Positions 33,744-60,194 of a stretch of 64,000 nt of DNA are shown here, piece after piece. The stretch is taken from the NCBI RefSeq assembly GCF_001517935.1, contig NZ_LOQF01000008.1:1-64000 (forward strand), in the 5' to 3' direction. The notes beneath the pieces are model-generated. The model saw only the letters and a program-made list of their open reading frames with translations, was not told the DNA's origin and ran no database searches. The number at the start of each line of letters is the position of its first letter. Position 1 is the stretch's first letter. Source of the stretch: Sneathia sanguinegens. Lineage in GTDB: Bacteria; Fusobacteriota; Fusobacteriia; Fusobacteriales; Leptotrichiaceae. A program made the translations under genes and the position numbers.

Positions 33744-35750
33744 TTGAAAAAAATAATATTTTTGAATTTAATAATTGCAACAGTAAGTATGTCTAATGCT
33801 ACATCAGGCTTTATTGAAGGAATATATGATGGAAAATATGAAGATAGCTATAATATTAAAGAAACAGGATTAAGCACAGAAATTAATTTGAAAAATGAAG
33901 GAGTATCATTAGGAGCAACACTTAAGATGAAAGATGTATCTGTTCCAATTAAAGAACATACATTAGTTAATAGTATTTTTGATAATTCAAATATATTTAT
34001 TAAGTATAAAACTCCTAAATTTAAAGGCATAGGTGGATATTTTAAGGGAACATTGAAACCAAAAGTAAAGAGAGAAAATGAATACTTATCATTTAAGACT
34101 AGCGTAGCTGAATTAGAAGGGGAAGCGAATTATGAATTTTTACCTGATTCTAAAATAGCTTTTAATTCTAAAACTGAATTTCCTTTTACAGGTAATGATA
34201 TTTTAACAACGAATAAGTTGTACCTTGAAGGGAAAGATATTAAAAATCTAAAAAATATTAAGGCTAGTATAGAATTGAAAAATTCATACCATAAAACAAG
34301 TGCCTTAAGATATTTAAGCATTAATAGTGAAGGAGAATATGATGCAACTCCTAAGTTTAAATTAAATGGTAAAACAGATTTTAGATATCAATTTAATAAT
34401 ACATCTAAAGTCAAAAATATATTAACAGATGAAGATTTTGAACTTAATCCAAAGGATTATGAACATTCATATACTTTAGATACAAGTTATTTAACATTAA
34501 ATGATAGATTAGAGTTAACAGGTGGAATATTTTTTCAACATATTTATTTTAATTCAGTATCTATAACATCAGATGAAATAAGCAAGATATATAAGTATAA
34601 AGATAAAAATACTGATATTTCTACTGTTTTATTTGATAGTTTAAAAAATATACAATTTGATGAAGAAGAAAAAGATTTTTTAAATAAACATAAAGAAGAA
34701 TATGAAAATTATAAAAAAGTAGCCAAAATAGCTAGAGAAAAATATGAAGAGGGACAAAAAGATTTAGGAAAATCAAGAGAAAAAGCCTTTAAAAATATTA
34801 TAGAAATGGAAAAAATTATTTTAGAAAATGAAAAAGTAAGAAAAATAGTTTATGAAAATTTGAATAAAATTAAAAATGGAGCTAATGAAAATAAAACACT
34901 TGAAGAAGTTCTTAATGAAATTAAATATAAATTTTATCCAAGTATGACAGTGCTTGATTTAGAAAATTATCAAGAAAGACCTGCAACAACATATGAAATT
35001 ATTACAAACTTTATAAATAAAAAATTAGGATTAAATGATATGGAAGCAAGAAATATATATCCAAAAATTGCTCCGTTTATTGGAAGTATAAAGGAATATA
35101 AAGCAAAAAAAGATAACTTAAAAATTAAAATATCAAGTGATTATAAAATATATTCGCTTTTAACTACACTATGCAATAAATGGAGAGAAGAACCAAATGG
35201 ATATATAAAAAAGCAAACTTTAATTGAAAAATTATGGAATCAAATATTTAATGATTCAGGATCTTCAAAATTATTAATAGATAATCTTGTAAATAAAACT
35301 ATTTCTAATTTTTCAAAATTAGGTTTTGGTGTTCCTGCACATGACTTTAATTATGGAATTAAATTAGGGGCGAAGTATAAGATTATGGATGAATTGACAT
35401 TTAGTGCAAATGGAATGTTTGCAGGTAATACAAGATTATCTTTTGAAAAATATACAAAGGGCTATGTTAAATTAGAAAGTGGTATTAAATATGATTATAC
35501 AGAGGATGAGGATAATATTACTGTATCGCCAGAATTTAATGCAATAGCTAAGTTATATAATATTGAAAAAAGTTGTGATGCAGAATTAATTTTATCTCCA
35601 AAATTAAGTGCAGTATCAACACCTATTGATAATTTGAAAATTAATGGAGAAATAGAAATACCAATTAAATTTGATAATAAAGGTGGTAAAAAATTCAATT
35701 ATAGTAATACAGCAATAAAAACTAAATTTAATATTAAATATGTGTGGTAA
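33744..35750 (+). CDS. Outer-membrane barrel protein with a large helical insert (paralogue A)
   Basis: A 668-residue protein with a TTG start. AGGAGG lies just upstream and only this start gives the signal peptide (KKIIFLNLIIATVSMSNA). Framework: a repeat of short beta strands (about 25-275), an insert of about 250 mostly helical and charged residues (about 275-525, Lys/Glu-rich), then strands again to the C-terminal FNIKYVW. The first and last parts resemble the proteins at 37425-39341 and 40254-41642: the NEGVSLGATLKMKDV pattern, IKYKTPKFKGIGGYFKG, and the ending with a final Trp. It is probably an outer-membrane protein with an exposed helical loop. It lies between alaS and ruvX. Confidence 0.7.
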   Translation: MKKIIFLNLIIATVSMSNATSGFIEGIYDGKYEDSYNIKETGLSTEINLKNEGVSLGATLKMKDVSVPIKEHTLVNSIFDNSNIFIKYKTPKFKGIGGYFKGTLKPKVKRENEYLSFKTSVAELEGEANYEFLPDSKIAFNSKTEFPFTGNDILTTNKLYLEGKDIKNLKNIKASIELKNSYHKTSALRYLSINSEGEYDATPKFKLNGKTDFRYQFNNTSKVKNILTDEDFELNPKDYEHSYTLDTSYLTLNDRLELTGGIFFQHIYFNSVSITSDEISKIYKYKDKNTDISTVLFDSLKNIQFDEEEKDFLNKHKEEYENYKKVAKIAREKYEEGQKDLGKSREKAFKNIIEMEKIILENEKVRKIVYENLNKIKNGANENKTLEEVLNEIKYKFYPSMTVLDLENYQERPATTYEIITNFINKKLGLNDMEARNIYPKIAPFIGSIKEYKAKKDNLKIKISSDYKIYSLLTTLCNKWREEPNGYIKKQTLIEKLWNQIFNDSGSSKLLIDNLVNKTISNFSKLGFGVPAHDFNYGIKLGAKYKIMDELTFSANGMFAGNTRLSFEKYTKGYVKLESGIKYDYTEDEDNITVSPEFNAIAKLYNIEKSCDAELILSPKLSAVSTPIDNLKINGEIEIPIKFDNKGGKKFNYSNTAIKTKFNIKYVW

Positions 35751-37424: not shown

Positions 37425-39341
37425 TTACCAAGAATATTTAATATTTAAACCAGTCTTGAAAGTTGTGCTTGAATAAGCGAATTTTCTTTTGTTATAAATA
37501 TTATCATCATTTAATAAACCACCATCTTTTGGTGTAGTGTATTCAGTTATTACATGTTTAAATTCAATAGGTAATTCAACTAATCCAGCAATTTCTAAAT
37601 TCTTAATTGGAGTATAAGCAATAGAAGCTTTAGGATTTAAGTTTAATTTAGCACTAAGGAATTTATTCTTATTTCTAGCATCCAAATTATCAACTGAACC
37701 TGAAATATTAAATTCTGGAACAACAGTTATGTTCTTAACTGGAGTATAAACATATTTAACACCAGAATCTAATCTAATATATCCAGTTATATCATAACCA
37801 TCTATTTTATCTTCTTCATTATCTTCAAAGTTTTGAACATAAGTTCCACCTAAAACTGTACCAGCAGTTATTTCTAAATTATTAATTGGTCTATAAGCTA
37901 CACCAAGTTTTGTACCAAAGTAAGCTTTTTCAGTTATGGCGTTTTGTCTTTTATCATTTTTTAACTTATTTAATTTTGAATCTGTTTTATCATCATAGTT
38001 ATTTTCTTTTATTTTCTTTAAAAGAGCTTCAATCTTAGTGATACAGTCTTTTGCGTCCTTTTCTATACTATCATTAGTTGCTGGAACAACCGCATTCGTA
38101 TTATCCCCTGCAGGTGTACTAGTAGATCCTGCAGCAGGCGTATTAGTTGTTGCTGAAGCAGGTGTTGTATTATTTTTCTTTATTTTTTCATTTAACTTAG
38201 TTAAATCATCATTTAATTCTGTGTCATCTTTAAAGTATTTTAATATTTCACTATCAATTTCAGTCTTACAATCATTTTTTATGTTATCTAATTTTGTTTT
38301 CAAATCATTTAGCTTATTAACATATTCATGCACATCTCCTACTTGTACAGTATGTCCACCAGTATGTACATGTTGTCCTAAAAGTGATGCTTTTAAATCT
38401 AATTTATTTTCTAGCATAGTATATTTTGCTTCAAATTCATAAGCTTGTGAATAGCTATTAGCTACTGTTAGTTTTTCATCATCATTCTTTAAGATATTCT
38501 TTGTAGTTTGTCCATCATTATCATCAGATGGTAAGTATAAGAAATCTGCATGAGCAGTAAGTGTTAAATTCTTAACATCTTTGTAATCTCCAACAAGTCC
38601 ACCTTTTACATATTTTAATGGAGAACTTGTATCTTGATTATTTGAAGCATTGAAAATAGAATAATCATTTTTAATTTCTAAATAAGCATCTAAGTCTTTA
38701 ATTACACCAGTTTCACCTTTAGCAGTTAATTTGTGAACTGAGAACATCTTATCTCCATATGTTCCTTCACTTGGTTTGTATAAAGGTAAGTGAGTAGAAG
38801 AATTTAAATTAAGATTAATTGTATCTAAAATGTATGATCCTTCTAATTCAACTAAAGCTTCACCTGCAAAACTTGCTTTGTCATTTTTATCCTTACTTAC
38901 TTTAGGAATGAAACCTAATTTAGCTGAAGATTTAATATTCATAAATTCAGGTATTTGGTATTTAAGATATACATTTGAATCTTCAGAAAATTTATATCCT
39001 GCTTTATCTTTAGTTGGATAAAGTTCAACATCTTTTCCCATAAATTCAGCACCAAAACTTAAACCTATTTTATTTAAAGTAACTTCAGTTTTAACACCTA
39101 AATCAGTTTTAAAACTAGGCTTTGTAGAACCATCTTTTTCTGATTTATAAGTTTTCTTAGGAGTAGAAGCAGTATTAGAACTACCAGTACTAGGTGTTGT
39201 TATTTCTTTATCTTCTAACTCCTTTTGTGTAGTTTCGACTTTTAAGTTATTATTATTAATAAATTCAACATGACCAGAAACAGAACTAGCCATTGAATAA
39301 AGTGATGCAACTATAGTTGCCAACATAATTGTTTTTTTCAT
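37425..39341 (-). CDS. Outer-membrane barrel protein with low-complexity insert (paralogue B)
   Basis: A 638-residue protein with a signal peptide (MKKTIMLATIVASLYSMAS). It has two regions not seen in the 462-residue paralogue: a Ser/Thr/Pro/Lys-rich N-terminal stretch (about 30-80), and an insert at about 335-467 made of helical segments around an Ala/Thr/Pro run (about 395-430). Outside these it follows the same strand pattern (LGVKTEVTLNKIGLSFGAE, VYLKYQIPEF, TPIKNLEIAGLVELPIEF) and ends LNIKYSW. It is probably a surface-exposed porin-like or adhesive protein. A -10 box TATAAT lies at 39380-39385. Confidence 0.72.
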   Translation of the reverse strand: MKKTIMLATIVASLYSMASSVSGHVEFINNNNLKVETTQKELEDKEITTPSTGSSNTASTPKKTYKSEKDGSTKPSFKTDLGVKTEVTLNKIGLSFGAEFMGKDVELYPTKDKAGYKFSEDSNVYLKYQIPEFMNIKSSAKLGFIPKVSKDKNDKASFAGEALVELEGSYILDTINLNLNSSTHLPLYKPSEGTYGDKMFSVHKLTAKGETGVIKDLDAYLEIKNDYSIFNASNNQDTSSPLKYVKGGLVGDYKDVKNLTLTAHADFLYLPSDDNDGQTTKNILKNDDEKLTVANSYSQAYEFEAKYTMLENKLDLKASLLGQHVHTGGHTVQVGDVHEYVNKLNDLKTKLDNIKNDCKTEIDSEILKYFKDDTELNDDLTKLNEKIKKNNTTPASATTNTPAAGSTSTPAGDNTNAVVPATNDSIEKDAKDCITKIEALLKKIKENNYDDKTDSKLNKLKNDKRQNAITEKAYFGTKLGVAYRPINNLEITAGTVLGGTYVQNFEDNEEDKIDGYDITGYIRLDSGVKYVYTPVKNITVVPEFNISGSVDNLDARNKNKFLSAKLNLNPKASIAYTPIKNLEIAGLVELPIEFKHVITEYTTPKDGGLLNDDNIYNKRKFAYSSTTFKTGLNIKYSW

Positions 39342-40253: not shown

Positions 40254-41642
40254 CTATTTCCATTCATATTTTAAATTCAAATTAGGTTTAACAGAGAAGC
40301 TCTTGTATTTGAAGTTGTGTTTTGCATCAGTTACATTATATCCTTCAAAATTAACTGGAACTTCAACTGAAGCAGTGAAAGTTAAGTCAGTAATAGGTTT
40401 GTAATTTAAATTAACCTTTGGACCTATAGTTAAGAAAGATAAAGCCTTATTATTATGTAATTTTCTAGGTTCTGTTGGTTTATGAGTATCATCATTTGTT
40501 TTATAATCTAAAGTAGTATTGAATCCATGTTTAGTATAGATACCTAATTCTGGAGTTATACTTAATTTATTATTTATATCAAAAGTATATCCAACCTTAG
40601 TATCTAGAGCTAATAATAGAGTTCTAAATTCATTGAATTTACTAATATATCCACCTAAAGTAGTTTTAGCTTCTAAAGCTAATTTGTCATTTAAAGCCTT
40701 ATATTCAACTTTAAAATCAACTGAAGGAACAACAGATACTTGAGCTTTATTGTCCTTTGTAGTATGCATTAGGTTTAAATATCCAGCACCAGTTAATGTT
40801 AAATGATCAAAACCAGTGTATTTAGCTTCTAAGCTGTATGCATGAGCGTATTTACCATTACCTTCTTTAAGTTCTTTCTTTCCATAATCAGTTCCATCTT
40901 GTTTAGCATTAGCTTCAACATTAGCCTTTTCATATAGATCTTTGTTACCTAAGAAAGTGTCTTTATAATCTAATTCGTTAGCTTTGATTGCAGCTAAGAA
41001 TTGAGCATTAGCAGTTAATTCTAATTTGTCAATTGGGCTGTATGATAATTTACCTTTACCAGATACTTTTTTAACATCAACATAGCTGTGGTTTAAAGCT
41101 AATTCTGCATCTATACCTTTAACCTTTAAAATATCTCCCTTAGCATAAACTTTTTGAGTAGACATTGCGCTTGCTTTATATGTATTTGTATCTGCTTTGA
41201 ATGGGAATTCTGTTTCAGAGTCAAAACCTAAATTTATATCTTTTAATTTATATTCAACATTAGCTTCTAATTTTGTTTTACCTTTTAAAGCGTAATTATC
41301 TTCTAATTCAGGATCAAATGTTCCTTTAACAAAAGTTTTTAAACCTTTGAAATCAGGTAATTGATATTTTACATAAACACTTGATTTATCTGCAAATTTT
41401 TTAGTTGTAAGTTTTAAATCTATTCCATTTGCATTGTTGTAAATAAGGTCTTCAGCCTTTATTTCTCCACCAAAACTTAAACCTAAGTTTTTGATTTCAA
41501 TGTCAGATTTAACACCAAGTTTTTTAATTTGGAATTTAGTGTTGTCAAATTCATTTTCATTAAAGAATTCAACATTACCTTTTGTTGCTGCAAATGCAGT
41601 CATTGTAGCGATTAAGCTAGTTAAAATTAATGTCTTTTTCAT
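40254..41642 (-). CDS. Outer-membrane barrel protein, compact form (paralogue C)
   Basis: A 462-residue protein with a signal peptide (MKKTLILTSLIATMTAFA). Strand pattern: KLGVKSDIEIKNLGLSFGGE, VYVKYQLPDFKGLKTFVKG, FDSETEFPF, LTGAGYLNLMHTT, KVNLNYKPITDLTFTASVEV, ending LNLKYEWK. It is the shortest of the set and shows the bare framework to which the other two add inserts after the LTGAGYLNL-like strand. It is strongly terminated and has a leader with AAGGAG and a -10 TATAAT at 41683-41688, fitting an abundant outer-membrane protein. Function (porin versus adhesin) not determined. Confidence 0.72.
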   Translation of the reverse strand: MKKTLILTSLIATMTAFAATKGNVEFFNENEFDNTKFQIKKLGVKSDIEIKNLGLSFGGEIKAEDLIYNNANGIDLKLTTKKFADKSSVYVKYQLPDFKGLKTFVKGTFDPELEDNYALKGKTKLEANVEYKLKDINLGFDSETEFPFKADTNTYKASAMSTQKVYAKGDILKVKGIDAELALNHSYVDVKKVSGKGKLSYSPIDKLELTANAQFLAAIKANELDYKDTFLGNKDLYEKANVEANAKQDGTDYGKKELKEGNGKYAHAYSLEAKYTGFDHLTLTGAGYLNLMHTTKDNKAQVSVVPSVDFKVEYKALNDKLALEAKTTLGGYISKFNEFRTLLLALDTKVGYTFDINNKLSITPELGIYTKHGFNTTLDYKTNDDTHKPTEPRKLHNNKALSFLTIGPKVNLNYKPITDLTFTASVEVPVNFEGYNVTDAKHNFKYKSFSVKPNLNLKYEWK

Positions 41643-48151: not shown

Positions 48152-48957
48152 AAATTAAAAACCTCTTCAATTTTTTTTGCAACAGCATCAGAATGACTAT
48201 CGTCTATAATCTCTTTTTCGGGTAATAAATCTTTTAATTCTTGCAAGGCATTAGCCATTATAAAGCTATTTTTAAATAATTTCAACATAGAATAGTCATT
48301 TAAACCATCACCGAAGGCAATAACTTCATCAGGATTTATACCATCTTTTTCTAAAAGTTTCAAACTTGCATTAGCTTTATTAGCTGAAATATCAAAGATT
48401 TCTAAGGAATTTTCACTAACAAAATCTATATTTGCATCCTTTGAAATATTTTCTTTTAAAACTTCACGAATCTTTTTTAAATTTTCAAAAGAGCCTATAA
48501 AAAAAAGTTTATTAAAGTCTTTCTTTTTAAATTCTTCTATATCTATTACTGTAGCACCAAAAGTTTTATCTACTCTTCTTTTTGAATAAAAATCCTTATA
48601 TTCTTCAGAAATAACAAACCAATCTGTTCCAGAATAGCCATTTATGAATATTTCTTTTCCATATTTCTTGTAATCCAAATTAAGAATAAAATCTTTACAT
48701 TTTTTATTTAATGTTACTGAATAGATTTCTTTACCTTTTTCATCAATTATTCTAGCACCATTAGTTGTAATAAGAGAAAGAGAGTGTGAAAATTGATCTG
48801 CAATTAATCTTGCTCCTCTTTCTACACGACCAGTAGCTATGTATAGCTTATACCCCTTATCTAAGAATTTATTAATAACATTCTTAGTATATGTGCTAAG
48901 AAAATGATCTTTATTTAATAAAGTTCCATCCAAATCAGTAACAACTGCTTTAAACAT
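48148..48957 (-). CDS. Cof-type HAD family phosphatase
   Basis: A 269-residue HAD IIB hydrolase: VVTDLDGTLLNKD (nucleophile Asp and acid Asp), TTNGARI, a C2 cap domain (about 85-185), and AFGDGLNDYSMLK near the C-terminus (metal Asp). These cytoplasmic enzymes dephosphorylate sugar phosphates, flavin or PLP precursors, and specificity is not readable. It is first in the operon, with an extended -10 promoter at 48984-48995. Confidence 0.88.
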   Translation of the reverse strand: MFKAVVTDLDGTLLNKDHFLSTYTKNVINKFLDKGYKLYIATGRVERGARLIADQFSHSLSLITTNGARIIDEKGKEIYSVTLNKKCKDFILNLDYKKYGKEIFINGYSGTDWFVISEEYKDFYSKRRVDKTFGATVIDIEEFKKKDFNKLFFIGSFENLKKIREVLKENISKDANIDFVSENSLEIFDISANKANASLKLLEKDGINPDEVIAFGDGLNDYSMLKLFKNSFIMANALQELKDLLPEKEIIDDSHSDAVAKKIEEVFNL

Positions 48958-48986
48958 TTAATCACTCCTTTAAATATATATGGAAT

Positions 48987-48995
48987 ATTATAGCA
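48987..48995 (-). promoter_or_regulatory. Extended -10 promoter of the HAD-to-sppA operon
   Basis: On the minus strand TGC directly precedes TATAAT (48987-48992), 30 bp upstream of the HAD start. The -35 box is poor. Confidence 0.55.
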
Positions 48996-49231
48996 TAAAT
49001 TAAAGTGAAAAGTTAAGGTTGTAATGAAAGTATTAAATAAAGTGAAAATATTAACTATATTTTTACATAAATTAAATTTTGTGAAAAAAATATAGAATAA
49101 AAACTTTATACACATATATCTTTTCTTCTTTTATATAAAAAAGGTAAAGACATAGACAGTAAAAGTCCAAGCATAAATAAAATTTATGGTACTATTAATA
49201 AAATATATTTAAAAAACTTTTTAAAAAATAG
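48996..49231. other. AT-rich divergent intergenic spacer
   Basis: A/T-rich DNA between the divergent HAD and outer-membrane-protein operons. I see no RNA gene, repeat or further palindrome in it. Confidence 0.4.
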
Positions 49232-49237
49232 TATAAT
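49232..49237 (+). promoter_or_regulatory. -10 box of the surface-protein operon
   Basis: TATAAT 31 bp before the 49268 start codon. No good -35 box, and several A/T tracts lie upstream. Confidence 0.45.
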
Positions 49238-49267
49238 TAAGTGAAAAATCTTGAAAGGAGATAGGGA

Positions 49268-51280
49268 ATGAAAAATAAAAAGATATGTTTTTTAGCAGTG
49301 CTATTATCGATGGCTTCTTATGCTTACGAGGCAAGCGTAGAAACAGGAGTTAAGGTTAATAGTAGTTTTGCACCCAAATATGAAACCACAGGTTATGAGT
49401 TAAATCTTTTGAAATTTAATATTAAACCGTTAAAAGAATTAGAATTTGGTGTTGATATTAAATCTGCAAGAAAAGATTTCTCAATTAATGATTATGATAA
49501 GGATATAAAGCACATATATAATTGGAAAAAAAGAGACGCAAATCATGATGTCATGTTGAAATTTTTAATTAATAATGAAAATAATTTGACTAAGGATTTA
49601 AAATTGACAAATAATTTTCAATATTATTTAGATGATTTTTGGATAAAGAAAAATTATTCAAAAGATGGGACAATAAAAGAAGAAGTAAAAACTGAATATT
49701 TAGAAGATGATGGAACAAAACAAGCTTTAGGAAATACAGTATTTAGTACAAATATTTCAGGAAAAGTTAAAAATACAGAAATAGATTCAAAAATTGAATA
49801 TAAGGCAAATCAATTTCATAGATTTGATAAAGATGAAGCATATTTTAAAGTAAATAGTAAAACTGATACAAAATTAAATGATAAATATGCTTTAAATAGT
49901 GAATACAATTTTGACATAGATCTTAATGCAGCAAGTAGACCATTTGATGCACTTGATACAGAATTAGATGAATTTCCTGATTTCCATTCGGGAGATTATG
50001 TAACAAAATTTGATCAAAAATTTAATTTTGGTTTTAAATACTCTGAAAATAAGAATAATTATGGTTTGAAATTAGAAATGAAACATCATGCAGAATATTC
50101 TAAGGGTCAAAAGAAAGAAGATCCATATAAAACTTTCTATAATATTTTAGATCCAAAACTTATTTTAAGTGCTAGTAATAATGTTGATTTAAAAGTAGGT
50201 AAATTAGTTTTTGATAATAGCTTAGGAAATTTAATAGAAGCAAGAATGACAAAATATTTACCAGATGAAAGTAGAAAAGAAAACTATGAACTAGCATTAA
50301 AATATGAACCAAGTTTAAAATCTAAATTAAAATATATGTATAATAAAAATAAGGATGATTTAGAACTAGATACAAGTTTAGAATATTTTCCAAGTTTTCT
50401 TTTATACCCAACAAATATAAATGCAGATGTTGTTCCGCATAATTTCAAACTTGGTTTTAAAACAAAATATGTTAGAAAATTAAATGATAAACAAGATGTT
50501 AGTTTTGATTTTGATAATAAACTAAGTAAAATAGTAAAATTTTCTGATAGTAAAGAAAATGAACCTAAAAATAATATTGAATCTAAATTGAACATAAAAT
50601 ATACAAATAAAGAAATAAAAGATTTGAATTTGAGTGTAAATTTAAATAATGAATTCAAAGAAGATACAATTAAAAAAGTAAAAATTTTACACCCTAATAA
50701 TACAAGTAATAAATTGAATTTAAGCATAGAAACAGAATATAAAGGGCTTAAAGATTTAGTATTTATTAATAAATTAAAATATAAAAATAGTTTAGCACTT
50801 AATCATGTAACAAGACCAGATGATAAAAATGTTTTAACATATTTAATAAATTCTTTGGAATTTGATAGTTCTGTAGAATATACAAAAAAAATTAGTGATA
50901 AATTGACCTTAAAGAGTGGCTTAGATGTACTTGCAAAATTTGATACCCTATTACTTAGAAGTGAAAAAATGTATAACTATAATACAAATGATATAGAAAA
51001 AACAAAAGAAAAACCTATGTTAAGTGATGCAGTTAATAATAAATATAATTTAGGAGGAAGTTTTGAATTAAAGCCTAAAGTTAGTGTTGTATATATGCCA
51101 ATAAAAAACTTAGAATTAAGTTCAGGATTTGAAATTTCTACTCTTTTTGAAAAGAAAGTAATAGATTTGATAAAGGATGAAAAAAGACCAGATGAAGGCT
51201 TATTTGGACCAATAGATAAGAAATTTGAATTTAGAAAATTAAAACCAAGCTTAACATTAAATTTGAAGTATAAATGGTAG
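49268..51280 (+). CDS. Outer-membrane barrel protein (paralogue D)
   Basis: A 670-residue protein with a signal peptide (MKNKKICFLAVLLSMASYAYE). The mature chain is a long series of short amphipathic strands separated by Lys/Asp/Asn-rich turns, enough for a large barrel of twenty or more strands. The C-terminal section (KPKVSVVYMPIKNLELSSGFEI and the ending LTLNLKYKW) matches the ends of the proteins at 33744, 37425 and 40254, so it belongs to the same paralogous family, but its middle is beta-rich rather than helical. It is first gene of a three-gene surface operon, 8 bp before the protease. Confidence 0.72.
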   Translation: MKNKKICFLAVLLSMASYAYEASVETGVKVNSSFAPKYETTGYELNLLKFNIKPLKELEFGVDIKSARKDFSINDYDKDIKHIYNWKKRDANHDVMLKFLINNENNLTKDLKLTNNFQYYLDDFWIKKNYSKDGTIKEEVKTEYLEDDGTKQALGNTVFSTNISGKVKNTEIDSKIEYKANQFHRFDKDEAYFKVNSKTDTKLNDKYALNSEYNFDIDLNAASRPFDALDTELDEFPDFHSGDYVTKFDQKFNFGFKYSENKNNYGLKLEMKHHAEYSKGQKKEDPYKTFYNILDPKLILSASNNVDLKVGKLVFDNSLGNLIEARMTKYLPDESRKENYELALKYEPSLKSKLKYMYNKNKDDLELDTSLEYFPSFLLYPTNINADVVPHNFKLGFKTKYVRKLNDKQDVSFDFDNKLSKIVKFSDSKENEPKNNIESKLNIKYTNKEIKDLNLSVNLNNEFKEDTIKKVKILHPNNTSNKLNLSIETEYKGLKDLVFINKLKYKNSLALNHVTRPDDKNVLTYLINSLEFDSSVEYTKKISDKLTLKSGLDVLAKFDTLLLRSEKMYNYNTNDIEKTKEKPMLSDAVNNKYNLGGSFELKPKVSVVYMPIKNLELSSGFEISTLFEKKVIDLIKDEKRPDEGLFGPIDKKFEFRKLKPSLTLNLKYKW

Positions 51281-51288
51281 GAGGTAAA

Positions 51289-54200
51289 ATGAGAGTAAAT
51301 AATAAAAGCATAGCTATATTTTTTGGTCTAATAGCTCTTAGTAGTTGTAGTAGTTTAAAAAAGGTAAATAATGCTGATAAAGCAAATAAATTAGAAGTTA
51401 AATATTTTAAACCTGAATATGATATTAATGAGGGTGTTAATGAAATAGTCAGCGAAATAAAAAAACAACCTGTAGACAGACTTAAAAATATTACAGCTAA
51501 AAATTTTGAAATAAAAAATTTAGATAAAATGTATGATAAAGAAGTAATATATTTAAATAATGATAGTTTAGATAAAAATATATCAATTGTTAAAATATAT
51601 AACAAAAAGCCTAGTTTGGTGTATAAAAAAGGAAGTAAAGGTTACGAAACTTTAGTTGGTGTAGAAAAAACAGGTGGAGAACTTTTCCCAGATAAGCCAG
51701 AATTAAAAAATGAAAAATATAAGGTAGTTACAGATAAGGATAGAAATAATGTCTATGTTCAAGTAAGAGATAATATTACAGGAAAAACAAAAGATATTAG
51801 ATTAGATAATAAGGTTTTAATTGAAGAAAGACCTAGTGAAATATCAGATAATATTAGATATGAAGATTTGAAAAAATTGAATAAGGATAAAAGAGTTAAG
51901 TATAAGATTAATACCTTAGATAATCCTTTTGAAGATGTAGCAGATGCAGAAAAACAAATAGTAAATGGTTATGAATTTTATGATTATAAAAATTATTTTA
52001 AACCAGATAAATACTATGATGAAGATGATTTGGCTGGAGTTAAAAGAGTTGACTTAATTGATCATATTGATGGTTTGAAAGATAAAGAATATAAAAGAAA
52101 TATAGATTTTGGAATAAAATTAGGAGATTTCAAAGATGATTATTCAAAACTTTTAGCAGATCTTAGTAAAAGAAGCCTTAAATTAACAGAAGATGGTAAG
52201 GTTATAGGAGGTTTTGATGAATATTTATCACAAAAAATAGAAAAATATAGTGAAGCAGAACCTCAAACTGGAAAAGTAAGTTTTGTAACTGAAATTTTAG
52301 ATAAGGATAAAAATGTAGGTTTACATAATGTAGTAAGAAAAATATTACAAGATGGAAAAGTAGTTTTTCAAAAGAAAGAAAAAGCTTTTGTAAGCTTTGA
52401 TGGAGTAAATGTTGCAGTAGCAGACGGAACTTTTTTTGATTTATCACCAGAAGTTGAAAAAAGAGTTTATAGAGGTACGGTAAAAGCTGATGATAAGGTT
52501 AAGGATTTTGTAAAAGAAGCTACAGATGAAAAAGAAAGAAAAAAAGCTCTACAACACTTATTAAGACAACATGGTGCAACAGTAATAGGAGCTATGATAG
52601 ATGAATCAGTTTTAGGAGATGCTTTTTATTGGACAGGTGCTATAACTGATACTCTTTGCAAGATTGGAGAAAAAGGAAATTTACCAGACTTTATACCAGA
52701 TTATCAAGCTTTAAATAAATTTATTGGAAATCTTTTATCAAAGTATGCAGATAAGTATTCACCAGAAATGACAAATTATTTAGCGGATAAAGTAAAAGCT
52801 GCTGCTGAAAAATTGGATGAAATAACAAATGTAGTAATAGATGCAAAGATAGCAGATGCTAATAAAAAAGAAATGTACAAAACTATGTATCCAGAATTAG
52901 CTCGTCTATTAAAAGAAGTTTATGGTATGCCAGAATTAGATAAATTAAAATTCTCTAAGTTGCATTTCACAACTATTAGTGTTGCTTCTGGAGATGAGCA
53001 TATAAAAACAAGTGATACTGCTAAAAATTTATCATCTATATTAGATTTGAATAAAAATATTAAGGCAATCAATATGTCTTATGGTTCAAACTATAATGTA
53101 GAAGAATATTTAGAATTAAGTAAATTAAAGCAAGAAGATTTTGAAAAAGGAGCAAAAGCATATAATACAGATGCATATTTCAGAAATGCAGTTTTATCAT
53201 GGTTAAAATCAGATGATGAAAAATCAGAACAAAATATGAAAGATTACTATAATGGTTATTTAGGAATACCTAGTGTATATAAATATTTTGCTTCAAGAAA
53301 TCAAATTAGTGCAAGTGACTATAAAAAACTTGTAGATTTGAGATTATTAACACTAAAAAGTGTCTTAAAAGAAGCACCTGAAATAACTGCTGCAAATCAT
53401 GATATTCTTTTTGTTAGATCAGCTGGAAATACTTATTCTTATGCTCAAATAGATTTAGCAAATTATGATAAAAATGGTAAAAAAATAGCTTATCATGATC
53501 CAAACTATAAATATAGTAATGATTTTGCTTCATTGCCAACATATATGAATGAAGTAGAAAAAGAAAAGGCAAGAGAAGAAGGAAAGGAATATAAATATAA
53601 CTATAACTATAGAAAAAATTTATTAGGTTCAGTTGGAGTTGTACCAAAGACATCAAGTTATGGATATGAAGCAACTGAAGATATTTCAAATGCTTGGGCA
53701 CTATACACAGATAAATTTAACTATAAGCGTTTAAGAGCTTTTGGAATAGGAATGTTGTCAGAATATAATTTCTTAATTAAGGAATTAAATAATATAGTAA
53801 GAAATCCTGAAAAATATCCTAAAGGATATAAAGAAGAAATAGTATCTAGAATTAAAGCTGTAGATAAAATGGTTGCAGAACATCAAGATATGGAAAAAGA
53901 TGATACAAGATATTCATTTTCAAGAGCAGGAAAAGCTATGTTATGGACTATGGCAGCTGACGGATCATATGTTTATACAAAGAGATTAACAAATGAAGAA
54001 AAGCAATATAGCGATGGAGAAGATATAGGTAGTGATATAGCATTTGGATCATCATTCTCAGCACCTAGAATGACAGCAGTAGCTGGTATGATAGCTGAAA
54101 AATTTCCATGGATGAGTGCACATGATATAAAAACAAGTATGTTGACAACAGCTATAGATGATTATAGATTGAATTTTATAGATTTAAATAAAGAAAAAGG

Positions 54201-56466
54201 AAAGAAAGATGAAAATCCAACTGAAAATCCAAATAAGACACCGAATATAAAAATTGAAGAAATAGGACTATATGGTGTAGATGAAAATATAGGTTGGGGA
54301 ATAATGGATAAGGAAGCAGCCCTAGATGGACCAGCAAGATTTGTAAAAGCATTAACACATGAAGTTGGTCAAGAAAACTTTGTTGCAAATGTACCATATG
54401 GAACATTTACTTTTGGAAATAGTATACAAGGGGCCTTTGATCCTATAAAACACATGTCATCAAGAAAATATATAACTTTAGAACAAGCAAATAGTCTTGT
54501 AGTAACAGCACAATTTAAAAATGAAGAAATATTAGATCCTAAATTTCTTGAAACACATGAAAATGTTAAAAGAGTTTTAGAAAGAACTAAAGTAACACCA
54601 CAACAAATAGTAAATGAATTAAGACCTAAGATAAAGAAATATTTGCCAAGTTTGAGCTTTGAAGAAAGAGAATTATTCCAAAGTGCAGGTTTAGAAAAAT
54701 TAGGAAAAGGTACTTTGATTTTATCAGGTAATAATACTTATACAGAACCAACATATGTAAAAGAAGGAACTTTGGTTGTGCAAGGTGTTCAAAATTCAGA
54801 TGTTATAGTTTCTGAAAATGCAAAATTGAAATTAGATTCAGAATATATTGAAAAAGGAAATTTAGCAAGAGTAATGTTAGGACTTGAACCTTTAAAAGGT
54901 GGAATTTACGCTAATGTAAAAAATAAAGGGCAACTATACTCATATTCAAACAAGGATAATATATTAGGTACATATATACCATATGAAAATTCATTGACTC
55001 GTATAGCAAATGGGGCAAGATTAAGTGTTGATAAATTAGATTTATCAAATATTTCACATTTTGATATAGACTTATTTAGAAAATATCAAATGATGACATT
55101 TGACTTAAAAGAAGTTAAGAAATTTGAAGATTATAATGACGATGATACGAAAGAAAGTAATGAAAAAACAGAAGATACTTTCAATAAAAAATTAATTTTT
55201 GTTGCCAAAGATGTAAGTGATGCTGATGTTTCTAAAATAACATTTGGAGAAGAAAGTGTAAGTTCAGGGCTTAAAATGATTACAGAATTAAAGAAGGAAA
55301 ATAATAAGAATATTGTAAAAATTTGGCTTGAAAGAAAAGAACATATATTTGATCCATTAAATGATAAAAAAGAAAATGAAGGACCAAAAGTACAAACATT
55401 ATCAACAAAATTGAAGAAATTTATAGTTTCTAAAATGAATAAAAAACTTAGTGATAAAGAATTAAATGAATTGAATATACAATTAGATAATTTGGAAATT
55501 GCCGATGACGAAGATGTAGAAACTTTAGATGGAAATATATTAGTAGATTCTATGACTTTAGGTTTAGAAAATTTAAATATTAGAAATAGAGCAATCTTAG
55601 ATACTGTAGAAAAAAATACAAATAAATCATTTGAAACTTTTGCAAGTGTACAAACAGATACTAAAATTAGAAAAGAAGATAAAAGAAATATTATTACTAC
55701 AGTTACAAATCTTTTTGCAGGTGTAGGTAAAGAATTTAGAAGCAAAATTTCAAAACATAACATAGCTATAGCATTAAATTACACAAATTCTAAATTAAAA
55801 GATTTAAGTTTTAAAGCAGGATTGAAAAAAGAAAATGTCTTAGGAGATGTTAATGTAAATGGAGCAGGTCTTGCAATGATTAATACTAATGATTTTAAAT
55901 TTGGTTTATCAACAAATACTATAATATCTGCAGATTATTTAGATAAACATATTTCAAGAAAATTATTAGATAAGGATGTTAAAGATACAAGAAGTTCTGA
56001 TTTCCTAGTAGATATTAATAATATAGTAGCATATAAATATGAAAAAGATGTAAATAATAAGGTAAGCTTAGGTATTAAACCATATATTGGTTTGGATGTA
56101 CCAGTATATATTAAAGGTTATTACAATGAAAATAGTGAATTTGGATATAATTCTGAAATGGAAGTATTTGTTAAACCAAGCATGACTTTAGGAACAAAAT
56201 TCAATGTAAGATATGATAAAGATTTAGATATAAGCATTTATGCAGATTATACAAAATATCTTGTAGATACAACTTTAAAATCAAAGGGTGAATTAAAGGG
56301 ATATAAATTTGTAAATGATATTTCAGGAGTTAAATTAACTGATAATATAGTTAACTTTGGGTTGAATGTAAACAAAAAAATTGGTAATTTAACTTTAGGA
56401 TTTGGATATAAAAATAGAAATATAAAAAATAATGCACTATCTACAATGTTTAGATATGAATTTTAG
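51289..56466 (+). CDS. Lipoprotein-type subtilisin autotransporter
   Basis: About 1725 residues. The ATG at 51289 follows AGGAGG. The N-terminus has a lipobox, L17-S18-S19-C20, so it is probably lipid-anchored during export. A pro-region of about 350 residues is followed by an S8 protease: Asp near 379 (VAVADGTFFD), His428 (QHGATVIGAM), oxyanion Asn714 (SAGN) and Ser922 (GSSFSAPRM). Distances between these are much larger than in subtilisin. A beta-helix-type passenger with the repeat GTLILSGNNTY...GTLVVQG begins near 1140. The last 270 or so residues form an autotransporter barrel ending MFRYEF. NalP and SphB1 share the lipobox/S8/barrel plan. It probably processes surface proteins; target unknown. 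Confidence 0.85.
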   Translation: MRVNNKSIAIFFGLIALSSCSSLKKVNNADKANKLEVKYFKPEYDINEGVNEIVSEIKKQPVDRLKNITAKNFEIKNLDKMYDKEVIYLNNDSLDKNISIVKIYNKKPSLVYKKGSKGYETLVGVEKTGGELFPDKPELKNEKYKVVTDKDRNNVYVQVRDNITGKTKDIRLDNKVLIEERPSEISDNIRYEDLKKLNKDKRVKYKINTLDNPFEDVADAEKQIVNGYEFYDYKNYFKPDKYYDEDDLAGVKRVDLIDHIDGLKDKEYKRNIDFGIKLGDFKDDYSKLLADLSKRSLKLTEDGKVIGGFDEYLSQKIEKYSEAEPQTGKVSFVTEILDKDKNVGLHNVVRKILQDGKVVFQKKEKAFVSFDGVNVAVADGTFFDLSPEVEKRVYRGTVKADDKVKDFVKEATDEKERKKALQHLLRQHGATVIGAMIDESVLGDAFYWTGAITDTLCKIGEKGNLPDFIPDYQALNKFIGNLLSKYADKYSPEMTNYLADKVKAAAEKLDEITNVVIDAKIADANKKEMYKTMYPELARLLKEVYGMPELDKLKFSKLHFTTISVASGDEHIKTSDTAKNLSSILDLNKNIKAINMSYGSNYNVEEYLELSKLKQEDFEKGAKAYNTDAYFRNAVLSWLKSDDEKSEQNMKDYYNGYLGIPSVYKYFASRNQISASDYKKLVDLRLLTLKSVLKEAPEITAANHDILFVRSAGNTYSYAQIDLANYDKNGKKIAYHDPNYKYSNDFASLPTYMNEVEKEKAREEGKEYKYNYNYRKNLLGSVGVVPKTSSYGYEATEDISNAWALYTDKFNYKRLRAFGIGMLSEYNFLIKELNNIVRNPEKYPKGYKEEIVSRIKAVDKMVAEHQDMEKDDTRYSFSRAGKAMLWTMAADGSYVYTKRLTNEEKQYSDGEDIGSDIAFGSSFSAPRMTAVAGMIAEKFPWMSAHDIKTSMLTTAIDDYRLNFIDLNKEKGKKDENPTENPNKTPNIKIEEIGLYGVDENIGWGIMDKEAALDGPARFVKALTHEVGQENFVANVPYGTFTFGNSIQGAFDPIKHMSSRKYITLEQANSLVVTAQFKNEEILDPKFLETHENVKRVLERTKVTPQQIVNELRPKIKKYLPSLSFEERELFQSAGLEKLGKGTLILSGNNTYTEPTYVKEGTLVVQGVQNSDVIVSENAKLKLDSEYIEKGNLARVMLGLEPLKGGIYANVKNKGQLYSYSNKDNILGTYIPYENSLTRIANGARLSVDKLDLSNISHFDIDLFRKYQMMTFDLKEVKKFEDYNDDDTKESNEKTEDTFNKKLIFVAKDVSDADVSKITFGEESVSSGLKMITELKKENNKNIVKIWLERKEHIFDPLNDKKENEGPKVQTLSTKLKKFIVSKMNKKLSDKELNELNIQLDNLEIADDEDVETLDGNILVDSMTLGLENLNIRNRAILDTVEKNTNKSFETFASVQTDTKIRKEDKRNIITTVTNLFAGVGKEFRSKISKHNIAIALNYTNSKLKDLSFKAGLKKENVLGDVNVNGAGLAMINTNDFKFGLSTNTIISADYLDKHISRKLLDKDVKDTRSSDFLVDINNIVAYKYEKDVNNKVSLGIKPYIGLDVPVYIKGYYNENSEFGYNSEMEVFVKPSMTLGTKFNVRYDKDLDISIYADYTKYLVDTTLKSKGELKGYKFVNDISGVKLTDNIVNFGLNVNKKIGNLTLGFGYKNRNIKNNALSTMFRYEF

Positions 56467-56475
56467 GAGATTAAT

Positions 56476-58344
56476 ATGAAAAATAAGATAAGTTTATTTG
56501 CACTATTATTAACTATTAGTTCATTTTCAGCTAATAAATTACCTGTGAACATTGATTTTGATGTAAATACGGGTTACAGTTTTGAAAAGGTAACAAAGAA
56601 AGAGTTTGATGAAGTTGGTTTAGGTAATTTAGTAAAAGGAGATTTGAAAATTTATAAATCAACTCTTGGTGCAAATTTAGGTGTAAGTAAAAGTTTTAAT
56701 ACAAAATATAAAAAATTTAAAGTCGAAGTTGGTGGAGGAATAGGAGCTACATTAGCTTTTGATACATATAATAATTTTTCGCAAATTAGAGAAAATGATA
56801 AAGAAGAAGAAAGCTTAATAGCTCTTGAAAAAAAATTAGACAATCTTAATTTTGCTTCTGTAAGAAGTGAAAAAGCCTTTGAAAAATTTTCAACTGAATT
56901 TTCATTAGCATTTAAAAGCGTTAGAGATGTAGAATATAGGCTATTAAAAGAAAGAGAAGAACTTTTTAAATTGAATCGTCAAATTAAAGAAAGAACAAAA
57001 TATAAAGAAGTATATAAGGATGAAAAAGATAGACAAGATTTAAAAAGAATGTATGTTGAAATTGAAAAGCAATTGAAGGAAAAAGTAAAAGAACGAAATC
57101 AATTAAATGCAGAATTAAATGAATATATAAATCAACATCCTGAAATTGCTAAAGAAAACTTAATTAAGGATAAAGGATATTCAGAAAAATTAGAAAAACT
57201 TAGAAAAAAAATAGAAGAAACTGATCATTGTTTTACGGTAGCTGTAGCTATTAGTGTTGATGAACATATAGTAGATAATCTAGATGGTGATACAAGTAAG
57301 TATGAAGAAAAAAAGGTGGAATCAGAAAAAAGAATAAAAGAATTAGAAGCAAAAAGAGAAAAAGTAGAAAATGCATATAAAGAAAAATATGGTACATATA
57401 ATAAACCTGATATAGTTACAAGAGTTGAAGAAAAAATAAAAGAAGAAGATGAAAGTGAAGAAAATGAAGTACCTAATTTAGTTAAGCATTTTAAAAATTC
57501 TGATGGAACTTTTGATTTTACAAAAGATCCACCTGTAGTGAATGATGATGAATCAATTAGAGATGATGATAAAAAAGAAGATCCATCTAAAGTTGAAGTA
57601 CCTACTGATAAAATACATACAGGTAAAGAAGAGGGGGATAGAAAGAAATTACCACCTACTGATTCTACTGAACCAAAAGCACAGTCTGTAGGAAAAGTTA
57701 CAGAAGAAGTGCAAGAGCTAATAAAACCTATAGATGATAATAGCGAAGGAAATTCAAATGAATCTGATAATGAAGAAGAACATAAATCTGAAGATGAAAA
57801 TACTAATGAAGAAGATAATGATGAAAATAAAAAAGAAGCAAGTGAGGATGAAGATACTTTTGAATTTTTAACAGAAGAAGACATAGGTGCTGAAAAAACA
57901 AAATGGGAAACTGCTACAGAAAATTATGATGAATTAAAGAAAGAATATGAAGAAAAGAGAAAAAAAATTGGAAGTAATGCAAAAGCAATAGATGAATTAG
58001 CAATGGCAATAGCAACTAATAAATTGAGTTATGAATTTTCAACTTATGCTAGCACTAAATTTGAATATAAGTTTAATGATGAAGTTGAAATAGTACTTGG
58101 TTTAGATTTAGGTTTAAGTATAGCTAATAATAGAATTTATTCTTATGCAAAATATTTACAAGATGTAAATGCAGTAGTTGATAAAAAGCAATATTTAATT
58201 CAAAATAATTTAAAACATGTAAAAGTAAATCCTTTATTTAAATTTAATGTTATTGGAAGATATAAAAACTTTAATTTAGGTGTTTATGGAATGCAAACAA
58301 ATAATACAACTTTAGGATTTACTGTAGGTTATAGATTTAAATAA
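56476..58344 (+). CDS. Outer-membrane protein with long coiled-coil and acidic insert
   Basis: A 622-residue protein with a signal peptide (MKNKISLFALLLTISSFSA). Strands at about 22-100 (VGGGIGATLAFD) and 515-622 (ending LGFTVGYRF-K) look like two parts of one barrel. Between them lie a Lys/Glu-rich coiled coil (about 105-330) and a very acidic, Asp/Glu/Asn-rich disordered stretch (about 330-490), then another short coil. The gene lies 9 bp after the autotransporter protease, so the two are co-expressed. The exposed insert is a plausible protease substrate or adhesive stalk. No family recognised. Confidence 0.65.
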   Translation: MKNKISLFALLLTISSFSANKLPVNIDFDVNTGYSFEKVTKKEFDEVGLGNLVKGDLKIYKSTLGANLGVSKSFNTKYKKFKVEVGGGIGATLAFDTYNNFSQIRENDKEEESLIALEKKLDNLNFASVRSEKAFEKFSTEFSLAFKSVRDVEYRLLKEREELFKLNRQIKERTKYKEVYKDEKDRQDLKRMYVEIEKQLKEKVKERNQLNAELNEYINQHPEIAKENLIKDKGYSEKLEKLRKKIEETDHCFTVAVAISVDEHIVDNLDGDTSKYEEKKVESEKRIKELEAKREKVENAYKEKYGTYNKPDIVTRVEEKIKEEDESEENEVPNLVKHFKNSDGTFDFTKDPPVVNDDESIRDDDKKEDPSKVEVPTDKIHTGKEEGDRKKLPPTDSTEPKAQSVGKVTEEVQELIKPIDDNSEGNSNESDNEEEHKSEDENTNEEDNDENKKEASEDEDTFEFLTEEDIGAEKTKWETATENYDELKKEYEEKRKKIGSNAKAIDELAMAIATNKLSYEFSTYASTKFEYKFNDEVEIVLGLDLGLSIANNRIYSYAKYLQDVNAVVDKKQYLIQNNLKHVKVNPLFKFNVIGRYKNFNLGVYGMQTNNTTLGFTVGYRFK

Positions 58345-58350
58345 TAAAAT

Positions 58351-58384
58351 ATGCACTCAATCTTATATAGATTGGGTGCATTTT
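58351..58384. terminator. Terminator at the end of the surface operon
   Basis: TGCACTCAATC/GATTGGGTGCA stem with one T-G pair (58352-58362 with 58370-58380), then TTTT. An A run on the other side allows use by the convergent nadN gene. Confidence 0.75.
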
Positions 58385-58397
58385 AAAATAATTGATT

Positions 58398-60194
58398 TTA
58401 TTGTTTTTTAACTTCATTATTTTTATCAAAATGGAAAATAACATTTGAATCAGTATAAGTTTTAAAGTCTTTATGAAGTTGTATAAATTTAATTAAGCTT
58501 TCAGCATCAGGCAAGAATGTATCTTCTCCACCTCTTGTTTTATCAATTTCACCGAAAGTCTTATAACCATCTTTACCTTTAGCAACATAAGCATTTGTAC
58601 CTACTGTATACATTTTATCATCTTGTATAGGTTCCCAAACACCAGTTTCTTCATTTTGAACTTCCATTTTAATTACTCTTTTACCATTTGCATCTTTGTA
58701 TTGATTAGCTTCATATCTCATACCAGCAGCATAAGGGAAAGCACCTGTTGAACCACCAACTAAAGCAAAGTCAAGAGCATCTTCTATAACTTGTTTAACT
58801 TCTGATCCTTTCATCTTTAATAGATATAAAGTGTTACCAAATGGAAGCAATGCATATGCATCGTTATAAGTCATTTCACCTAATTTAATGTCTTGTCTAA
58901 CTCCACCAGCATTTTGTATAGTCATATCTATATGTGATTGTTTTCCAAAACTTCTCATTTGAGTTAACATTGTTTCTGCAACAAATCTAGTAGCTATAGA
59001 TCCCTTAGGGTTAGCGGTATTAGGTATTCTATTTGCAGAACCACCAGGCATAACATTACCAGAAATTACACCTACAACCTTATCTCCTAGTAATTTCTTT
59101 TCTTTTTTGAATTTTTCTAATATTAAAGAAGCTTTAGGATCTGCTTTTGCTATCTTAAAGTATTTTGTATTAGCTAAAGTATTTAATATTTGTTCTCTTT
59201 CTTCACCAGTAGGGATATATTTATTACCATTTGCATCTTTTCTTTGGAATGTTGAATCTAAGTGATAAGGAATAACAGGTGTTCCCTTTATACTTTCAAC
59301 AATACCATCTTTTGAAAATTTAATATCAAGATTTCCTATTAATTTTGAATATTCCCAACCTTCTACAACATAAACAGGTTCTCCATTAGGACTTGTGAAT
59401 TTTGTAGGATATTCTGAAATTACTGGAAGACCAAATTTTCTCATTTCATCATTACCAAATAGGTAGTGAGTATCTCCAGTTATTATAATATCTATTCCTG
59501 TAACTTTTTTTGCAATTTCAAAATTTTTGATTGCTCCAGCATGAGAAAGTAATATTATTTTATTAACTCCTTGCTTTTTCAATATGTCAGCATATTTTTG
59601 AGCAGTTTTAATTTCGTCATAAAATTTGATATCTGGACCAGGACTTGAAGATTCCTTAGTCTTTCTAACAACATCTATACCTATTATACCAACTTTTTCT
59701 CCATTTATTTTTTTAATAGCATAAGGCTTCCAATATCCTTCTAATATACTACCTTTATCAGGAACTACATTAGCAGATATGATAGGTATTTTTAAATAAT
59801 CTAAGAACTTTTTAAGACCTTCATTACCTGCATCAAATTCATGATTACCTAGTGTGAAGTAATCAAATTTTGTTAAATTCATCATTTGAGCATCAGCAGA
59901 TCCTCTAAATAATGTGAAATACAAAGTACCTGTTATAGCATCTCCAGCATGAAGTACTAGAGTATGTTTTCTAGTCTTTCTAAATTCGTTTATAAAATGA
60001 ACAACTTCAGGGTATCCACCTATTTTAACATTAGTTGGTTTACCATCAATGTTAAATTTTAATTCACTAGGTTCAAGGTGTGAATGATGATCGTTAATGT
60101 GAACAATGCTAAGGTTAAGTGGATAGTGCTTAGCAGCTAATGTGTATGATGTTGCTAATGGCAACAAAGCCATAAGTAATAGATTTTTTTTCAT
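58398..60194 (-). CDS. nadN: NadN-like periplasmic NAD 5'-nucleotidase
   Basis: A 598-residue protein with a signal peptide (MKKNLLLMALLPLATSYTLAA). The metallophosphatase domain has VHINDHHSHLEP, VLHAGDAITGTLYFTLF, TLGNHEFDAGNEGL, LLSHAG and ITGDTHYLF. The C-terminal 5'-nucleotidase domain carries the substrate region with QNAGGVRQDI and YALLPFGNTLYLL. The GTLYFTLF-GSADA and ELxFN-like N-terminal details match Haemophilus NadN, which cleaves NAD to NMN and then to nicotinamide riboside for uptake. UshA-type general nucleotidase is the alternative. It is 16 bp behind the gene at 60211. Confidence 0.88.
   Translation of the reverse strand: MKKNLLLMALLPLATSYTLAAKHYPLNLSIVHINDHHSHLEPSELKFNIDGKPTNVKIGGYPEVVHFINEFRKTRKHTLVLHAGDAITGTLYFTLFRGSADAQMMNLTKFDYFTLGNHEFDAGNEGLKKFLDYLKIPIISANVVPDKGSILEGYWKPYAIKKINGEKVGIIGIDVVRKTKESSSPGPDIKFYDEIKTAQKYADILKKQGVNKIILLSHAGAIKNFEIAKKVTGIDIIITGDTHYLFGNDEMRKFGLPVISEYPTKFTSPNGEPVYVVEGWEYSKLIGNLDIKFSKDGIVESIKGTPVIPYHLDSTFQRKDANGNKYIPTGEEREQILNTLANTKYFKIAKADPKASLILEKFKKEKKLLGDKVVGVISGNVMPGGSANRIPNTANPKGSIATRFVAETMLTQMRSFGKQSHIDMTIQNAGGVRQDIKLGEMTYNDAYALLPFGNTLYLLKMKGSEVKQVIEDALDFALVGGSTGAFPYAAGMRYEANQYKDANGKRVIKMEVQNEETGVWEPIQDDKMYTVGTNAYVAKGKDGYKTFGEIDKTRGGEDTFLPDAESLIKFIQLHKDFKTYTDSNVIFHFDKNNEVKKQ

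What the first reader, a model, noticed from the sequence alone, without database searches (positions are those of the whole stretch)
51289..56466. Lipid-anchored subtilisin autotransporter with greatly expanded catalytic domain
Seen: lipobox at C20, S8 residues at about D379, H428, N714 and S922, passenger repeat, C-terminal barrel. The His-to-Ser distance is about 494 residues and Asn-to-Ser about 208, against 157 and 66 in subtilisin, and the Asp motif reads D-G-T rather than D-S/T-G. Known: NalP and SphB1 are lipidated S8 autotransporters that process other surface proteins. Inferred: a maturase or sheddase for this surface, with large insertions that may bind substrates.
Basis: partly seen in the sequence, partly recalled or inferred. 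Interest (0 to 1): 0.7.

Follow-up and report, generated by a model that had tools for sequence, protein, structure and literature searches.

The report
Enlarged surface protease with partner gene
This gene encodes a fat-anchored protein-cutting enzyme on the bacterial surface whose cutting domain carries unusually large inserts, and it was always found next to a gene for a probable outer-membrane partner, which suggests a small dedicated surface-processing system.

Summary
Window 51289-56466 (+) encodes a 1725-aa type Va autotransporter with a lipobox at C20, a peptidase S8 domain, one PATR repeat and a C-terminal barrel. D379, H428, N714 and S922 are invariant in all five family members found. 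A forced global profile alignment puts them on the D/H/N/S of ordinary Leptotrichiaceae S8 autotransporters; the local alignment covers only the Ser region. His-Ser spacing is 494-653 in the five, against 170-198 in ordinary relatives.

Two points change the picture. Lipidation is ordinary here: most short S8 autotransporters of the family also carry a lipobox. And the gene is one of four paralogues in its genome, each directly downstream of a ~690-aa probable outer-membrane barrel gene (U). A fifth pair lies in another genome. In 98 Fusobacteriota genomes full-length U and the enlarged protease occur only together, five of five. Three of the five cassettes carry a third gene (D).

Most likely it is an active, surface-tethered processing protease; U and D are the first candidate targets or docking partners. 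That step is inference. Structure prediction failed for lack of an admissible alignment. New variant of a known kind.

The parts
49209..49237 (+). promoter-like site TTAAAA-17-TATAAT, 30 bp before gene U
   Evidence: such sites are no more frequent than in shuffles, so only its position speaks for it
49268..51280 (+). gene U: 670 aa, signal peptide, probable outer-membrane beta-barrel ending in ...YKW; neighbour of the protease in 5 of 5 loci
   Evidence: barrel nature inferred (no Pfam family over cut-off; AF2 uninformative)
51289..56466 (+). enlarged lipobox-bearing S8 autotransporter, 1725 aa
51289..51348 (+). signal peptide and lipobox LSSC, Cys20 the expected acylation site
   Evidence: L-x-S-C in 5 of 5 members
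51484..52383 (+). N-domain, residues 66-365, between lipid anchor and catalytic domain; no Pfam match over its cut-off
52423..52425 (+). catalytic Asp379
52570..52572 (+). catalytic His428
52624..52968 (+). insertion I1, residues 446-560 (115-235 aa among members, 22% mean pair identity)
53077..53079 (+). Ser597 of NMSYG, equivalent of the subtilisin Ser125 strand
53101..53382 (+). insertion I2, residues 605-698 (93-95 aa in all members, 39%)
53428..53430 (+). oxyanion-hole Asn714
53449..53904 (+). insertion I3, residues 721-872: I3a 65 aa in all members and 48% identical, I3b variable
54052..54054 (+). catalytic Ser922 (GSSFSAP)
54691..54780 (+). PATR repeat, residues 1135-1164
55699..56463 (+). 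C-terminal autotransporter barrel (Pfam 1471-1707, to the terminal F)
56476..58344 (+). gene D: 622 aa, signal peptide, charged and probably coiled-coil middle, short barrel-like end
   Evidence: present in 3 of 5 cassettes; coiled coil and barrel are inferred by eye
58351..58381 (+). terminator-like hairpin after gene D (13 pairs, then UUUU)
   Evidence: -18.3 kcal/mol, z -7.5; missed by the consensus scan; lies between convergent genes and could serve both

Best explanation
A catalytically competent, lipid-anchored type Va autotransporter protease of family S8 that stays at the cell surface and processes neighbouring surface proteins. Steps: Sec export; acylation at Cys20; passage and barrel insertion through the autotransporter route; the PATR stem and lipid hold the protease outside (all inferred from anatomy and from the known type Va route). 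The S8 core is kept while three insertions at fixed places and a 300-aa N-domain surround it (shown by alignment). Length and sequence of insertion I1 differ most among paralogues, so each of the four cassettes may have its own target (inferred). The U protein, found beside the protease in 5 of 5 loci, is the leading candidate for target or docking partner (inferred), and D an optional second one.
For: Triad and oxyanion Asn invariant in 5 of 5 members that are 35-53% identical. Global hhalign to 12 ordinary relatives, E 4.7e-46, with D379, H428, NMSYG, AGN714 and S922 on the canonical positions. S8, PATR and barrel families hit in 5 of 5. Lipobox in 5 of 5. Operon layout: gaps of 8 and 9 bp, a promoter-like site and a strong hairpin at the ends. 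Full-length U and the enlarged protease occur in the same 2 of 98 genomes, always adjacent. U and protease identities correlate over the 10 locus pairs, Pearson 0.96, Spearman 0.78 (pairs are not independent, and C2-C7 drives much of it). The enlarged proteases form one group, support 100/99. Precedent: lipidated NalP and SphB1 cleave other surface proteins (PMC9977779 and PMC9289746, passages seen).
Against: No substrate is shown. The local hhalign covers only residues 877-1054 and the Pfam match starts at profile position 88, so Asp and His rest on conservation and on an alignment forced to be global. The AF2 model is useless (pLDDT 36). Co-inheritance does not tell target from partner from hitch-hiking. 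D is absent at 2 of 5 loci. The same-genus genome G001 has no enlarged protease, so the function is dispensable in a close relative.
Confidence: 0.45

Rival explanations
1. It is a host-directed surface protease like fusolisin: it degrades host or mucosal proteins for peptides or immune evasion, and U is a pore or receptor that takes up products.
For: Nearest named relative by sequence is fusolisin, described as damaging host tissue and inactivating immune effectors (PMC4214739, abstract and passages). Small genome of a presumably fastidious host-associated bacterium (size; habits from PMC13393775 passages; species inferred).
Against: Insertions around the active site and four diverged paralogues suggest selective rather than broad cleavage. 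U resembles no TonB-dependent or other uptake family in Pfam.
Confidence: 0.32
2. U is an accessory for outer-membrane passage or surface display of this oversized lipidated passenger, in the manner of Slam or of an extra assembly factor.
For: Strict 5 of 5 adjacency with U first in the operon; full-length U found nowhere without the protease.
Against: The protease has its own barrel. A Pfam scan of 5 U members shows no Slam or other transport family over cut-off. Ordinary lipobox-bearing S8 autotransporters of the family do without U.
Confidence: 0.13
3. It is a non-catalytic S8 scaffold used as adhesin or binder.
For: Large insertions; the short S8 autotransporters of the same genus seem to have lost the catalytic Asp.
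Against: D, H, N and S are all invariant in 5 of 5 members although overall identity is 35-53%.
Confidence: 0.08

Closest known systems
Fusolisin family (NCBIfam NF033865; PDB 8axg)
   Same: Fusobacterial S8 autotransporter; Ser region, GWG motif and PATR stem align
   Different: About 115 kDa against 1725 aa; published triad D141-H175-S397 (PMC4214739, passage) against 379-428-922; score far below the NCBIfam cut-off; no U gene seen in the passages read
NalP and SphB1 (lipidated subtilase autotransporters)
   Same: Lipidated, S8 passenger, type Va barrel (PMC9977779, PMC9289746, passages)
   Different: Here four paralogues in cassettes with a U gene; large insertions and an N-domain; function untested. 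A direct sequence comparison with NalP or SphB1 was not made
Ssp of Serratia (PMC9977779)
   Same: Three insertions at the active-site mouth, with deletion variants of which some kept some protease activity (passages); profile match to 8e7f, E 2.6e-21 (that 8e7f is Ssp is assumed from its molecule name)
   Different: Ssp insertions are two hairpins and a loop; here about 90-235 aa each
S8 proteases with a PA-domain insertion (C5a peptidase, tomato subtilase 3)
   Same: Large domain inserted in an S8 core (named in PMC9977779, passage)
   Different: No PA family match up to E 0.1 in 5 of 5 members

Membership tests
Peptidase family S8 (subtilase) | Profile match over curated cut-off | tested here: met
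   PF00082 52.7 bits against 21.8; 5 of 5 members match
Peptidase family S8 (subtilase) | Asp-His-Ser triad and oxyanion Asn in order | tested here: met
   invariant in 5 of 5 and aligned to canonical positions, at sequence level only
Peptidase family S8 (subtilase) | Triad assembled in one fold | tested here: inconclusive
   AF2 from a single sequence, pLDDT 36
Type Va autotransporter | C-terminal barrel (PF03797) after a PATR/beta-helix stem | tested here: met
   5 of 5 members match; the window member alone scores 23 bits against a cut-off of 26
Lipidated autotransporter (NalP/SphB1 type) | Lipobox | tested here: met
   lipobox in 5 of 5; acylation itself not testable here
Lipidated autotransporter (NalP/SphB1 type) | Cleaves other surface proteins | not testable with these tools
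   needs a deletion and surface proteomics
Fusolisin equivalog NF033865 | Score over 999 bits | tested here: not met
   103.7 bits
Slam translocon (considered for U) | Pfam match to a Slam or other known translocon family | tested here: not met
   no such family among hits up to E 0.1 in 5 U members, save one member's weak Autotransporter hit, E 0.043

The most novel reading that the evidence does not exclude
A modular surface-processing system: a lipidated protease with a customised, insertion-shrouded active site, paired with its own large outer-membrane protein (U) and sometimes a second one (D), and duplicated into four parallel cassettes whose specificities differ through the hypervariable insert I1.
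Probability: 0.28. Interest if true: 0.62.

Novelty: new variant of a known kind. Interest (0 to 1): 0.42.

Why it matters
If true, a very small genome devotes about 34 kb (from the coordinates) to four parallel sets of surface protease plus cognate outer-membrane protein. That would give a tractable case of how a processing protease is matched to its target, and a possible source of surface variation in a little-studied host-associated bacterium.

Tried and rejected
Structure prediction of residues 341-1061 (pLDDT 36.1) and of mature U (pLDDT 29.5), both from single sequences: uninformative, not used; no fold search was run on them. Relatives in genome contigs and viral contigs: none. PA domain as the insertion: not found. 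Phase variation by homopolymer: no A/T run over 8 and no G/C run of 6 or more in the region scanned, 48901-58700; the four 8-A tracts lie in U (50884) and D (56828, 57204, 57960), none in the protease. Consensus promoter scan: 59 sites against 66.8 in shuffles, so not evidence in itself. Literature: three searches with Sneathia among the terms (one search listed no Sneathia paper among its 15) and passages of PMC13393775 and PMC3535699 show no mention of these proteases; only that library was searched.

The first choice of ordinary relatives kept 12 of 23 loci because my Ser pattern missed GSSFATP and the like; re-measured 8 of the 11 dropped ones, with the same spacing range; 3 stayed unmeasured. 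The profile alignment and the tree used only the 12.

Full report
What is there. The gene at 51289-56466 (+) encodes 1725 aa: signal peptide with lipobox at C20, an N-domain (66-365), an S8 domain stretched over about 366-1050, a PATR repeat at 1135-1164 and a C-terminal barrel.

Is it more than chance? The window's genome (G000, 1.29 Mb, 32 contigs) holds 7 S8 genes. Four are enlarged paralogues: the window gene and one each on contigs C2, C7 and C11, 1670-1809 aa as translated. A fifth is in G002, another genus of the same family (1680 aa). In the alignment of these five, 242 of 1725 window positions are invariant, among them C20, D379, H428, S597, N714 and S922. Global hhalign of this family against 12 ordinary Leptotrichiaceae S8 autotransporters gives E 4.7e-46 and places all of these (C20 lies outside the aligned part) on the canonical D, H, substrate-strand Ser, Asn and Ser; the local alignment covers only the Ser region, 877-1054. 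Thus Ser is very well supported, Asn and the substrate strand lie inside the Pfam match (565-973), Asp and His rest on conservation and a forced global alignment, and the three-dimensional site is not shown. AF2 without an alignment failed.

How enlarged? Ordinary relatives have H-S 170-198 (20 of 23 loci measured) and N-S 70-81 (12 loci); the five have 494-653 and 202-245. The extra residues fall in three places. I1 (446-560) follows His, is 115-235 aa long and only 22% identical. I2 (605-698) is 93-95 aa in all members. I3 (721-872) starts with 65 aa that are fixed in length and 48% identical, then varies. None of these, nor the N-domain, matches a Pfam family over its cut-off. Insertions at the active-site mouth are published for Ssp (PMC9977779, passages), and PA domains are known in others, so enlargement as such is not new; its size and the fixed plan are what stand out.

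A lipobox is ordinary here. It was seen in 5 of 5 enlarged proteins, in 4 of 4 short S8 autotransporters of the same genus (by eye in F_C15, where the script's pattern took an earlier Cys), in 11 of 12 ordinary relatives (read by eye) and in 9 of the 11 others of that set. In those 11 ordinary ones a run of Gly follows shortly after the Cys; the enlarged ones have an N-domain instead.

The unit is a cassette. In 5 of 5 loci the gene directly upstream encodes a secreted protein of 670-811 aa (U), 30-55% identical between loci. Profile searches over 98 Fusobacteriota genomes find full-length U in exactly the 2 genomes, and at exactly the 5 places, that hold the enlarged protease (U at E up to 1e-10; protease, full length); with a looser limit over 33 family genomes only two weak partial matches are added. 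A third gene, D, follows in 3 of 5 loci; it is absent at C11 and beside the G002 gene, with weak partial matches elsewhere. Identities of U and protease run in parallel over the 10 locus pairs (Pearson 0.96, Spearman 0.78), and C2-C7 is the closest pair in both trees, as expected if cassettes were duplicated whole. Intergenic gaps of 8 and 9 bp, a promoter-like site before U and a strong hairpin after D suggest one operon. That U is a barrel is inferred from its signal peptide, terminal aromatic residue and weak similarity to other probable outer-membrane proteins of the window; neither Pfam nor AF2 confirms it.

Mechanism. I think it most likely that this is an active surface protease tethered by lipid, whose cleft is partly walled by its insertions, acting on proteins beside it. 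U, co-inherited without exception in what was searched, is the first candidate for target or docking partner; four cassettes with divergent I1 would be four specificities. A host-directed, fusolisin-like role with U as an uptake pore is nearly as likely. Nothing here tests substrates.

Where it comes from. Size, 26.4% GC in the window and family composition fit Sneathia sanguinegens (26.7-27.2% GC; genus 1.25-1.35 Mb; PMC13393775, passages), with G001 (one contig of 1,330,224 bp) perhaps S. vaginalis and G002 perhaps Caviibacter (1.22 Mb, PMC5093955, passages). This is inference. PMC13393775 speaks of four putative autotransporter adhesins and its main text holds no 'subtilisin', 'subtilase' or 'serine' (passages only).

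Verdict. New variant of a known kind: S8 autotransporters and lipidated ones are known; the fixed three-insert plan and the strict pairing with U I have not found described in the searches made, of which I read listings and passages only.

Noticed in passing
L012:5686-8688, L013:4604-7483, L011:10470-13430, L014:4758-7430: The four short S8 autotransporters of this genus keep His, Asn and Ser but show no Asp in the aligned catalytic column; a V-H/N-x-F-E stretch lies nearby. They may be degenerate or use another acid.
   Followed up: partly
window 33744-35750, 37425-39341, 40254-41642: Three related probable outer-membrane proteins, weakly similar to U; two have long low-complexity or helical inserts.
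   Followed up: partly
L011:5237-13430: On contig C11 an enlarged protease and a short S8 autotransporter stand tail to tail, 64 bp apart.
   Followed up: no
L051:3817-6252: U of G002 has a proline-rich insert with repeated PPAPPLP; one U member matches formin FH1 in Pfam, E 0.00039, presumably this one.
   Followed up: no
window 56476-58344: Gene D has a strongly acidic low-complexity stretch between a helical-looking region and a short barrel-like end; its middle differs greatly between the three copies.
   Followed up: no
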